Source: Methylophilus medardicus (GTDB lineage: Bacteria > Pseudomonadota > Gammaproteobacteria > Burkholderiales > Methylophilaceae). Taken from it: a DNA stretch of 64,000 nt. The notes under the pieces were generated by a model. The model made no database searches, had not been told where the DNA came from, and saw nothing but the letters and a program-made list of their open reading frames with translations. The DNA is taken from the NCBI RefSeq assembly GCF_006363955.1, contig NZ_CP040948.1, forward strand, positions 744,001 to 808,000, read 5' to 3'. Position numbers and translations under genes: made by a program. Below, piece after piece: positions 29,931 through 63,708 of the stretch (position 1 is its first letter; each line of letters starts with the position of its first letter).

Positions 29931-29952
29931 ATTAAAACTGAATAGTTTTAAT
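29931..29952 (+). other. Stem-loop immediately before tRNA-Ser
   Basis: Perfect nine-base-pair stem ATTAAAACT / AGTTTTAAT with a GAAT loop. It ends one base before the mature 5' end of the tRNA, so in the precursor it would stack next to the RNase P cleavage site. AT-rich and without a T-run after it, so not a terminator. Confidence 0.65.
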
Positions 29953-29953
29953 A

Positions 29954-30047
29954 GGTGAGCTGGCCGAGTGGTCGAAGGCACTTCCCTGCTAAGGAAGCAT
30001 ATGGGCTTAAACCTGTATCGAGGGTTCGAATCCCTCGCTCACCGCCA
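29954..30047 (+). tRNA. tRNA-Ser (anticodon GCU)
   Basis: A 94-base class II tRNA. Acceptor GGTGAGC pairs with GCTCACC, followed by G and an encoded CCA. Anticodon arm CTTCC-CTGCTAA-GGAAG gives anticodon GCU, reading AGC/AGU. A long variable arm and the GGTTCGAATCC T-arm are present. Confidence 0.96.
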
Positions 30048-30062
30048 CAAAGCTTAAATTTG

Positions 30063-30071
30063 TGTTATAAT
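30063..30071 (+). promoter_or_regulatory. Extended -10 element before tRNA-Arg
   Basis: TG-T-TATAAT, a consensus extended -10, lies between the two tRNAs; no good -35 is visible. The tRNA-Arg may therefore be transcribed alone as well as by read-through from tRNA-Ser. Confidence 0.5.
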
Positions 30072-30077
30072 GCTGTT

Positions 30078-30096
30078 TTTGTTGCATAGCAGCAAA
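30078..30096 (+). other. Stem-loop before tRNA-Arg
   Basis: Eight-base-pair stem TTTGTTGC / GCAGCAAA (one G-T pair) with an ATA loop, five bases before the mature 5' end. It would begin at or near the transcript start set by the extended -10. Confidence 0.55.
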
Positions 30097-30101
30097 CCTT
30101 G

Positions 30102-30178
30102 GCGCCCGTAGCTCAGTTGGATAGAGTATTTGGCTACGAACCAAAGGGTCGGGCGTTCGAATCGCTCCGGGCGCGCCA
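30102..30178 (+). tRNA. tRNA-Arg (anticodon ACG)
   Basis: A 77-base tRNA with encoded CCA. Acceptor GCGCCCG pairs with CGGGCGC; anticodon arm TTTGG-CTACGAA-CCAAA gives ACG (A34 is normally converted to inosine to read CGU/CGC/CGA). D-arm GCTCAGTTGGATAGAG and T-arm with GTTCGAATC are canonical. Confidence 0.96.
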
Positions 30179-30183
30179 AAAAT

Positions 30184-30218
30184 AAAAAGCCTTGTTTCTT
30201 CGGAAGCAAGGCTTTTTT
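30184..30218 (+). terminator. Terminator of the tRNA-Ser/tRNA-Arg unit
   Basis: Strong stem AAAAAGCCTTG-TTTC / GAAG-CAAGGCTTTTTT with a TTCG tetraloop and a terminal T-run, beginning about six bases after the CCA of tRNA-Arg. Confidence 0.9.
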
Positions 30219-30371
30219 CTTTGTTGGTGTAGCAGGCCCTCACCGTTGTCTAGCAGATTGTAGCCATTGCTGCAGGATGTAAGCGTTTTGCATGCTTCAG
30301 GCAGCGCTGAGCGTAGCGAGAGGTATGTCAGGTATGGTATGCTTTAACTTTGCTTTTTCATTGGTGTTTCA

Positions 30372-62753: not shown

Positions 62754-62843
62754 TCTTTGTCATAATCGTCGGAAAATACAAAGATTGCAGTTGATAGAAC
62801 ATAAACTTCATCTCGCATAATAAGAAGATTCAGGGGATCATTC

Positions 62844-63158
62844 ATGACACTCACAAAAGCTGACTTGGCTGACTTGTTGTTTGAACAAGTCGGGCTGAAT
62901 AAGCGCGAAGCCAAGGATATGGTTGAAGCGTTTTTTGAAGAGGTGCGCAATGCGCTTGAACAAGGCGACAGCGTCAAACTCTCCGGTTTTGGTAATTTTG
63001 AACTGCGCACAAAATCTGAGCGCCCTGGCCGTAACCCAAAAACTGGCGAAGAAATTCCTATTTCTGCACGTCGGGTGGTGACATTTCATGCCAGCCAAAA
63101 ATTAAAATTACGCGTAGAAGAACACTACGCTGAGCAACCGTTTCAGGCACAAGCTTAA
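62844..63158 (+). CDS. ihfA: Integration host factor alpha subunit
   Basis: A 104-residue DNA-bending protein, partner of Ihf[34 protein letters not shown] is the HU/IHF N-terminus and [26 protein letters not shown] the DNA-intercalating arm. Downstream of pheT as in E. coli. Confidence 0.98.
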
Positions 63159-63171
63159 CTAAACATTTCTT

Positions 63172-63603
63172 ATGGTAGAAACGCAAAAAGTCACACTGCC
63201 GCCTATTCCAGCCAAACGTTATTTCACGATTGGTGAAGTTAGCGAGTTGTGCGGGGTAAAGCCGCATGTTTTGCGTTATTGGGAGCAAGAGTTTACCCAA
63301 CTCAAACCGGTAAAACGCCGTGGTAATCGTCGTTACTACCAGCATCACGAAGTCCTTCTCATCCGTAAAATTCGCGAGCTGCTTTATGAGCAAGGGTTTA
63401 CCATCAGCGGTGCGCGCAATCGATTAGAGGGTGTGGATGAAAAAGCTGACAAATCCCGCGCCGCCACTGAAGTATCTAATGTTACAGCCGCTAACAACAG
63501 CCAGGCGCTATTAGCAGATGTTTCTGCCCTACCGGTGGTCGATGTCGCTGCACTCAGACTACAAATTCAACAGATACTCCAATTGTTAAAAGCGCCTGTT
63601 TAA
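63172..63603 (+). CDS. MerR family transcriptional regulator
   Basis: A 143-residue regulator. HTH_MerR at about residues 17-85: RYFTIGEVSELCGVKPHVLRYWEQEF, followed by RGNRRYYQHHEVLLIRKIRELLYEQGFTISGARNRL. A coiled C-terminus (LRLQIQQILQLLK) serves dimerisation. No metal-binding Cys. This gene after ihfA is very widely conserved in proteobacteria, target unknown. Confidence 0.93.
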   Translation: MVETQKVTLPPIPAKRYFTIGEVSELCGVKPHVLRYWEQEFTQLKPVKRRGNRRYYQHHEVLLIRKIRELLYEQGFTISGARNRLEGVDEKADKSRAATEVSNVTAANNSQALLADVSALPVVDVAALRLQIQQILQLLKAPV

Positions 63604-63621
63604 ACACGGCTACGCATACAT

Positions 63622-63658
63622 AAAACCGCATATTCTGCTTAGCGAATATGCGGTTTTG
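63622..63658 (+). terminator. Terminator of the thrS-merR operon
   Basis: Stem AAAACCGCATATTC / GAATATGCGGTTTT around TGCTTAGC, followed by TTTT; it also directly precedes the tRNA-Pro promoter. Confidence 0.85.
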
Positions 63659-63661
63659 TTT

Positions 63662-63667
63662 TATAAT
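63662..63667 (+). promoter_or_regulatory. Probable -10 of tRNA-Pro
   Basis: A perfect TATAAT immediately after the terminator stem; a -35 of TTAGCG quality lies 17 bases upstream, inside that stem. Predicted start about 63674. Confidence 0.5.
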
Positions 63668-63680
63668 GCACCCTTCTTTT

Positions 63681-63698
63681 CGAACAGGTTCCTGTTCG
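63681..63698 (+). other. Stem-loop before tRNA-Pro
   Basis: Perfect palindrome CGAACAGG, TT, CCTGTTCG, about seven pairs with a GUUC-type loop, ending ten bases before the mature 5' end. The same kind of element precedes the other three tRNAs, with different sequence. Confidence 0.65.
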
Positions 63699-63708
63699 AT
63701 TCTGATGT

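What the first reader, a model, noticed from the sequence alone, without database searches (positions are those of the whole stretch)
29931..63708. Every tRNA gene in the window is preceded by a strong leader stem-loop of unrelated sequence
Seen directly: tRNA-Ser, -Arg, -Val and -Pro each have a hairpin 1, 5, 5 and 10 bases before the mature 5' end (29931-29952, 30078-30096, 55704-55725, 63681-63698). Stems are 7-10 pairs; three are perfect palindromes and the fourth has one G-U pair. Sequences differ completely, so the structure rather than the sequence is shared, at three separate loci and with different promoters. None has a T-run, so they are not terminators. Possible roles (inference): a conserved RNase P substrate feature, protection of the 5' end of the precursor, prevention of leader-tRNA misfolding, or a site for an RNA-binding protein or nuclease that controls tRNA maturation. 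I know of no described rule that bacterial tRNA leaders carry such elements.
Basis: partly seen in the sequence, partly recalled or inferred. Interest (0 to 1): 0.72.

Follow-up and report, generated by a model that had tools for sequence, protein, structure and literature searches.

The report
Long tRNA leaders fold into hairpins
In this methylotrophic bacterium, its relatives and E. coli, tRNA precursors that start with a long 5' tail often fold that tail into its own small hairpin, whose sequence changes freely while the folding is kept, probably so that the tail does not tangle with the tRNA before it is cut off.

Summary
The four hairpins are real and beyond chance. "Every tRNA" holds in the window (4 of 4), not in the genome: 7 of 40 distinct upstream sequences carry a stem of 8 or more pairs (0.3-0.4 expected in the last 30-40 nt). 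The better rule is leader length. In this genome 16 of 30 promoter-called leaders are 2-18 nt; of 11 leaders of 20-60 nt, 8 fold better than 95% of shuffles (control DNA 1 of 11). Five Methylophilaceae genomes: 34 of 63 against 8 of 63; a partial E. coli K-12 set: 7 of 10 against 0 of 10. The tRNA-Pro stem shows compensatory changes; Val and Arg leaders keep hairpins while sequence turns over; G.U exceeds A.C 31 to 11, so the RNA is what folds. Best explanation: the hairpin keeps an overlong leader off the tRNA and leaves bases free for RNase P. In silico, native leaders pair with their tRNA less than shuffled ones (1.30 against 3.89). 5'-end protection is the main rival. Single structured leaders and an engineered equivalent are known; I found no statement of the rule.

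The parts
29865..29870 (+). -10 hexamer TAGTAT of tRNA-Ser, followed by a GC-rich discriminator; predicted start of transcription near 29877
   Evidence: my own consensus scorer; the strict scan lists no promoter here; prediction, not mapped
29877..29953 (+). predicted 77-nt leader of tRNA-Ser(GCU), folding into three consecutive hairpins
   Evidence: E -23.9, p 0.005 against 200 shuffles; all nine 77-78 nt leaders listed have p 0.005
29931..29952 (+). leader hairpin 1 (9 pairs, loop of 4), 1 nt before tRNA-Ser
29954..30047 (+). tRNA-Ser(GCU)
30066..30071 (+). -10 hexamer TATAAT of tRNA-Arg; predicted start near 30078
   Evidence: not listed by the strict scan; prediction
30078..30096 (+). leader hairpin 2 (8 pairs, one G.U), starting at the predicted first base of the transcript, 5 nt before tRNA-Arg
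   Evidence: 10 of 11 distinct orthologous leaders of 20 nt or more fold at p<=0.05, control 4 of 11
30102..30178 (+). tRNA-Arg(ACG)
55684..55689 (+). -10 hexamer TAGAAT of tRNA-Val; predicted start near 55696
   Evidence: prediction
55704..55725 (+). leader hairpin 3 (9 pairs, perfect), 5 nt before tRNA-Val
   Evidence: 11 of 14 distinct orthologous leaders p<=0.05, control 2 of 14; hairpin part variable beside an invariant promoter-proximal part
55731..55807 (+). tRNA-Val(GAC)
63662..63667 (+). -10 hexamer TATAAT of tRNA-Pro; predicted start near 63674
   Evidence: not listed by the strict scan; prediction
63680..63699 (+). leader hairpin 4 (8 pairs, perfect), 9 nt before tRNA-Pro; covariation support
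   Evidence: 12 of 16 distinct orthologous leaders of 20 nt or more p<=0.05, control 1 of 16
63709..63785 (+). tRNA-Pro(GGG)

Best explanation
The hairpins are leader insulators. A pre-tRNA whose leader is long (from about 20-30 nt) tends to fold it into a self-contained stem-loop that starts at or near the first base of the transcript and ends a few bases before the mature 5' end. The leader then does not pair with the tRNA body or the 3' CCA, and the bases next to the cleavage site stay single-stranded for RNase P, which removes hairpin and leader together. Only base pairing matters, so the sequence drifts under compensatory change. Shown here: the hairpins, their enrichment, covariation at tRNA-Pro, the RNA-strand bias, and lower leader-tRNA pairing in energy models. 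Inferred: transcription starts, folding in the cell, and that faster or cleaner RNase P cleavage is the selected benefit.
For: (1) Leaders of 20-60 nt in five Methylophilaceae genomes: 34 of 63 below 95% of their shuffles, equal-length DNA upstream of the -35 8 of 63 (32 of 60 against 8 of 60 after removing identical leaders). E. coli K-12, partial set: 7 of 10 against 0 of 10. 45-nt stretches before window ORFs: 2 of 25. (2) tRNA-Pro stem over 12 Methylophilus leaders: 97.9% of 96 cells paired, 3 of 8 pairs changed on both sides (10 cells), slid controls 27-45% paired. Val 11 of 14, Pro 12 of 16, Arg 10 of 11 distinct orthologous leaders p<=0.05 although their last 30 nt average only 39-48% ungapped identity. 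(3) 31 G.U against 11 A.C in 58 stems found by a symmetric search, expected 53:47, p=0.008: the transcribed strand folds. (4) Native leaders against shuffles on the same tRNA: leader-tRNA pairing 1.30 against 3.89, cloverleaf probability 0.751 against 0.675; better than the shuffle mean in 59 and 57 of 63; E. coli 12 of 12 lower in cross pairing. (5) Leaders swapped among tRNAs insulate nearly as well as the own one in G000 and G006, non-leader DNA does not. (6) Among leaders that fold to -4 kcal/mol or lower, the hairpin begins within 4 nt of the predicted start in 83% (folding shuffles 59%) and leaves 3-10 nt to the tRNA in 66% (48%). (7) PMC9433436 (passages): leader pairing with the 3' RCCA, or of distal leader with bases near the cleavage site, slows RNase P, and the authors engineered a stem-loop into the distal leader to prevent inhibitory structure, the same arrangement built by hand.
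Against: Transcription starts are predicted. 29 of 63 long leaders are not significant; the excess over control DNA is small in G008 (4 of 13 against 2 of 13) and G022 (6 of 10 against 3 of 10). The 18 Ser(GCU) leaders of 20-29 nt are unfolded (none below -2.7 kcal/mol), so hairpins are not the only solution; the hairpin-less E. coli Leu-CAA leader also pairs little with its tRNA. A leader that folds on itself must pair less with anything else, so the insulation result is partly a consequence of the hairpin, not proof of why it was selected. In G027 swapped leaders lie nearer to non-leader DNA (own 0.71, swapped 2.08, non-leader 3.23). For Arg and Ala-GGC in G000 the native cloverleaf probability is not better than the shuffle mean, for one Met gene of G008 it is much worse (0.26 against 0.71), for E. 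coli Leu-CAG it is lower (0.28 against 0.34), and for the 77-nt Ser leader the cross-pairing gain is small (2.03 against 2.58, 68% of shuffles as low). On tRNA-Pro two of the controls are not exceeded: pairs with double change (101 of 500 shuffles reach it) and pair types (487 of 500). The Ser hairpin lies 1 nt from the cleavage site; [quoted passage not shown]
Confidence: 0.6

Rival explanations
1. 5'-end protection: the stem sits at the 5' end of the primary transcript and blocks pyrophosphate removal by RppH and 5'-end-dependent attack by RNase E, as 5'-terminal stem-loops do in some mRNAs, so that the precursor survives until RNase P acts.
For: Hairpins start within 4 nt of the predicted start in 83% of folded leaders against 59% in folding shuffles. 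[quoted passage not shown]
Against: It does not predict that the whole leader is covered (three hairpins in the 77-nt Ser leader), nor hairpins in spacers between tRNAs (12 of 40 spacers p<=0.05, although attenuators may explain some). Short leaders in the same genome get no such cap. In the window only the Arg stem starts at the predicted first base; Val starts at about +9 and Pro at about +7. The 5' end of a tRNA precursor is removed anyway.
Confidence: 0.22
2. Early-elongation aid: the nascent hairpin behind RNA polymerase stops backtracking or R-loops at these highly transcribed genes.
For: Position soon after the predicted start; strand bias to RNA.
Confidence: 0.08
3. DNA palindromes: binding sites or cruciforms at tRNA promoters.
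For: Perfect palindromic arms in 3 of 4 window cases.
Against: No shared sequence; loops of 3-4 bases; G.U exceeds A.C 31 to 11, which a double-stranded palindrome does not predict.
Confidence: 0.04
4. Chance and composition, no function.
For: 29 of 63 long leaders are not individually significant.
Against: Enrichment over shuffles, upstream DNA and ORF-upstream regions, plus covariation at tRNA-Pro.
Confidence: 0.04
5. Attenuators or terminators controlling tRNA transcription.
For: A weak terminator-like match at 29908-29921 in the Ser leader.
Against: None of the four stems is reported by the terminator scan, and none is followed by a T-run on reading.
Confidence: 0.02

Closest known systems
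Engineered distal-leader stem-loop of the ptRNA-Met(N-6 to N-1)21C substrate pool (PMC9433436, passages)
   Same: A stem-loop placed in the distal 5' leader with a free stretch before the cleavage site, put there to sequester bases and prevent inhibitory structure.
   Different: Made by experimenters for one substrate; here natural, at many tRNA genes, with pairing kept by compensatory change at tRNA-Pro.
E. coli pre-tRNA-Tyr (tyrT) leader
   Same: A long leader with a hairpin near its 5' end in my fold (E -10.5, p 0.103, so not significant alone). That it is a classical RNase P substrate is recalled.
   Different: Treated as a single substrate as far as I know (recalled), not as a case of a length rule.
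5'-terminal protective stem-loops of mRNAs (PMC3985628, passages; Emory et al. 1992 seen there only as a reference)
   Same: A stem at the 5' end of a transcript.
   Different: Described as protecting transcripts against decay; here the leader is removed during maturation.
Stem-loops flanking the first tRNA of E. coli valVW that enforce 3'-to-5' order of RNase P cleavage (PMC10731613, passages)
   Same: A stem-loop beside a tRNA in a precursor affects RNase P.
   Different: There the stem inhibits cleavage; here most folded leaders leave 3-10 free bases, though the Ser hairpin at 1 nt could act that way.

Membership tests
pre-tRNA leader insulator (working class proposed here) | hairpin lies inside the transcribed leader | tested here: inconclusive
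   consistent with predicted starts; no mapped start
pre-tRNA leader insulator (working class proposed here) | pairing kept while sequence changes | tested here: met
   Pro, covariation on 12 sequences; Val, Pro, Arg by folding each leader
pre-tRNA leader insulator (working class proposed here) | lowers pairing between leader and tRNA | tested here: met
   in silico only, on average and not in every case:
pre-tRNA leader insulator (working class proposed here) | improves RNase P processing | not testable with these tools
   needs kinetics
intrinsic terminator / attenuator | GC-rich stem followed by a T-run | tested here: not met
   for the four stems
5'-terminal protective stem-loop | stem within a few bases of the transcript's 5' end | tested here: inconclusive
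   83% of folded leaders start within 4 nt of the predicted start; starts not mapped; in the window Arg at +1, Pro at about +7, Val at about +9, Ser hairpin 1 far inside its leader
known Rfam RNA family | match at the gathering score | tested here: not met
   only the four tRNAs match in the window

The most novel reading that the evidence does not exclude
A general design rule of proteobacterial tRNA genes, perhaps of bacterial ones: leaders are either short, or A/C-rich and unfolded, or folded into a sequence-free hairpin that spans from near the start of transcription to the RNase P footprint, and selection keeps converting overlong leaders into such insulators.
Probability: 0.4. Interest if true: 0.65.

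Novelty: new variant of a known kind. Interest (0 to 1): 0.52.

Why it matters
tRNA leaders are usually treated as disposable. If long leaders are under selection to fold away, they are a hidden class of RNA elements that ordinary sequence alignment misses, since only pairing is kept. It would help to explain how RNase P copes with very different leaders, would help to predict tRNA promoters and starts, and gives a simple rule for designing tRNA genes. It is directly testable in laboratory strains.

Tried and rejected
Rejected: 'every tRNA of the genome has one'. Rejected: terminator or attenuator for the four stems. Disfavoured: DNA palindrome. Little yield: two genomes from other families of the order, G032 (35 tRNAs, 13 promoter-called) and G033 (36, 19), have only 2 leaders of 20-60 nt each (0 of 2 and 1 of 2 significant; controls 0 of 2 each), so they neither extend nor limit the rule. 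Spacers between tRNAs without an internal promoter call: 12 of 40 significant, suggestive only; some look like attenuators (before tRNA-Cys). The Arg and Val alignments were too gapped for pair counting and were judged by folding each sequence. Contiguous-stem counting misses stems with internal loops, so later calls used folding energy.

Literature: 10 searches ran. Searches found no paper, one on start sites in another methylotroph (listing only), one (PMC9433436), and searches lists of which I saw titles and abstract starts. Passages of five papers were read: PMC9433436, PMC10731613, PMC11143913, PMC3985628, PMC9841416 (not used). No paper was read whole. None of what I saw states a leader-length rule; [quoted passage not shown] Only open-licence papers are held.

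Rows dropped: genes without a promoter call (10 of 40 in G000; 35 of 59 in E. coli; 3 of 121 Ser-GCU; not counted for the orthologues), leaders under 20 or over 60 nt in the main test (over 90: 3; under 20: 3 Pro, 1 Arg), identical duplicates. The E. coli set is partial: 24 stretches chosen from recalled coordinates, and at least one of its start calls (Phe, 64 nt) looks wrong.

Full report
What was checked. The window lies at 744,001-808,000 of a 2.60-Mb single-contig genome. Its closest named relatives among the loci are Methylophilus: the loci around tRNA-Ser of Methylophilus sp. 13, M. rhizosphaerae and M. methylotrophus align to the window at 78-81%, and unnamed genus members have contigs of exactly the lengths of M. 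methylotrophus DSM 46235 (G004), M. rhizosphaerae (G005) and M. aquaticus (G001). So the host is a Methylophilus or very near it (Methylophilaceae; inference).

The observation. Four tRNA genes, four hairpins, as described, with one small correction: the Pro stem is 8 pairs, 63680-63699, 9 nt before the gene. Each is rare in shuffles of its own upstream sequence, and none is reported by the terminator scan.

The genome. All 42 tRNA genes were collected, giving 40 distinct upstream sequences. Seven have a stem of 8 or more pairs, against 0.26, 0.42 or 1.19 expected in the last 30, 40 or 60 nt: the four in the window, one Val-UAC, Cys and one Gly-GCC. So the claim fails for most tRNA genes. A simple promoter scorer of my own suggests why. 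Of 30 genes with a called promoter, 16 have a predicted leader of 2-18 nt and 14 of 24 nt or more. Of the 11 leaders of 20-60 nt, 8 fold better than 95% of their dinucleotide shuffles, against 1 of 11 equal-length stretches upstream of the -35. Stems with internal loops (Phe, Ser-CGA, Ala-GGC), missed by contiguous-stem counting, appear here. The three that miss: Leu-CAA (E -0.2), a Met gene that I take for the initiator (p 0.36), Lys (p 0.063).

Relatives. The same test gives G006 9 of 12 (control 0 of 12), G008 4 of 13 (2 of 13) (both same genus), G022 6 of 10 (3 of 10) and G027 7 of 17 (2 of 17) (other genera of the family); altogether 34 of 63 against 8 of 63, or 32 of 60 against 8 of 60 without duplicates. 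Among 70 distinct leaders including E. coli, 59 reach -4 kcal/mol where shuffles predict 26.5. In two genomes of other families of the order, long leaders are too few to judge. In E. coli K-12, on a partial set of 59 tRNA genes of which 24 had a promoter call, 7 of 10 long leaders are significant and 0 of 10 controls. As a protein-gene control, 2 of 25 stretches before window ORFs are significant (25 of 52 ORFs had a large enough gap).

Selection on pairing. For tRNA-Pro, 12 Methylophilus leaders align with few gaps: 97.9% of 96 cells are paired, 3 of 8 pairs have changes on both sides, 10 cells in all, and sliding the partner by 1-3 columns drops pairing to 27-45%. Two of the eight pairs never vary and say nothing. 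Cells paired, double-changed cells and the covariation score exceed all 500 letter shuffles; the number of pairs with double change (101 of 500 reach it) and the number of pair types (487 of 500) do not. For Val, the promoter-proximal part of the leader is invariant and the hairpin part is not, yet 11 of 14 distinct leaders fold significantly; Pro 12 of 16 (3 leaders under 20 nt left out), Arg 10 of 11 (one of 5 nt left out), with control DNA 2 of 14, 1 of 16 and 4 of 11. In 58 stems found among 102 leaders with G.U and A.C treated alike, 31 are G.U and 11 A.C (p=0.008), while shuffled leaders give about half; shuffles give 13.7 such stems per set. A double-stranded palindrome would not show this, so the folded molecule is the transcript. 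Related sequences are included, so the p-value is optimistic.

A natural comparison. tRNA-Ser(GCU) from 118 promoter-called of 121 distinct loci gives 92 distinct leaders. Eighteen are under 20 nt. The 18 of 20-29 nt are unfolded (none below -2.7 kcal/mol). Of the 53 of 30-90 nt, 45 reach -4 kcal/mol. Over the 71 leaders of 20-90 nt, 32 are significant against 5 of 55 controls; by energy alone the contrast is weaker (45 of 71 against 22 of 55 at -4 kcal/mol). These sequences share ancestry, so the counts are not independent.

How it may work. With ViennaRNA, each long leader was put before its own tRNA and compared with shuffled leaders: leader-tRNA pairing 1.30 against 3.89, cloverleaf probability 0.751 against 0.675, over 63 cases. 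Swapping leaders among tRNAs keeps most of the benefit in G000 and G006 (cross pairing own 1.38 and 1.40, swapped 2.14 and 2.02, non-leader DNA 4.16 and 5.00) and less in G027 (0.71, 2.08, 3.23). E. coli leaders behave alike, 12 of 12 lower. Among folded leaders the hairpins begin close to the predicted start, and 66% leave 3-10 nt before the tRNA against 48% in folding shuffles. This fits what is printed about RNase P: its protein touches leader bases 5' of -3, leader pairing with the RCCA end or with bases near the cleavage site inhibits, such structures occur in endogenous substrates, and experimenters added a stem-loop to the distal leader to avoid inhibitory structure (PMC9433436, passages); [quoted passage not shown] The best reading is therefore insulation. 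The circularity must be named: any self-folding leader pairs less with its neighbour, so the models show that insulation would work, not that it was selected for. 5'-end protection, which PMC3985628 (passages) describes for stem-loops at transcript ends, predicts a similar position and remains the chief rival.

Novelty. Structured leaders of single pre-tRNAs are known, and the engineered version exists. [quoted passage not shown] In ten searches of the paper library I saw no statement that long bacterial tRNA leaders are generally folded and kept so by compensatory change; most subscription papers are not held. I call it a new variant of a known kind.

Noticed in passing
window 63620-63659: A 16-pair terminator-like hairpin directly abuts the tRNA-Pro promoter, its T-tract running into the TATAAT box; 13 of the 20 tRNA-Pro upstream sequences listed keep it or a close variant, so an upstream terminator and the tRNA promoter seem to share sequence.
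   Followed up: partly
between tRNA-Ser and tRNA-Arg in loci L059-L065: These relatives have extra sequence between the two tRNAs that ends in a repeat of the tRNA-Ser 3' end and what follows it (CACCGCCACAAAGC), like a scar of an element that once used the tRNA as target; the window has no such extra sequence.
   Followed up: no
G000:C1 upstream of tRNA-Tyr at 338023: The -10 box lies in a perfect inverted repeat ACCGCGATAATCGCGGT; G006 shares GATAATCGCGGT. Possible operator or chance.
   Followed up: no
Ser(GCU) leaders, 20-29 nt: These leaders lack hairpins and look rich in A and C with little pairing potential, perhaps a second way of keeping a leader inert.
   Followed up: partly
spacers before tRNA-Cys in G000, G006, G008, G022: The spacer keeps a strong first hairpin in all four genomes, followed by a clear run of T's in three, like an attenuator between two tRNAs.
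   Followed up: no
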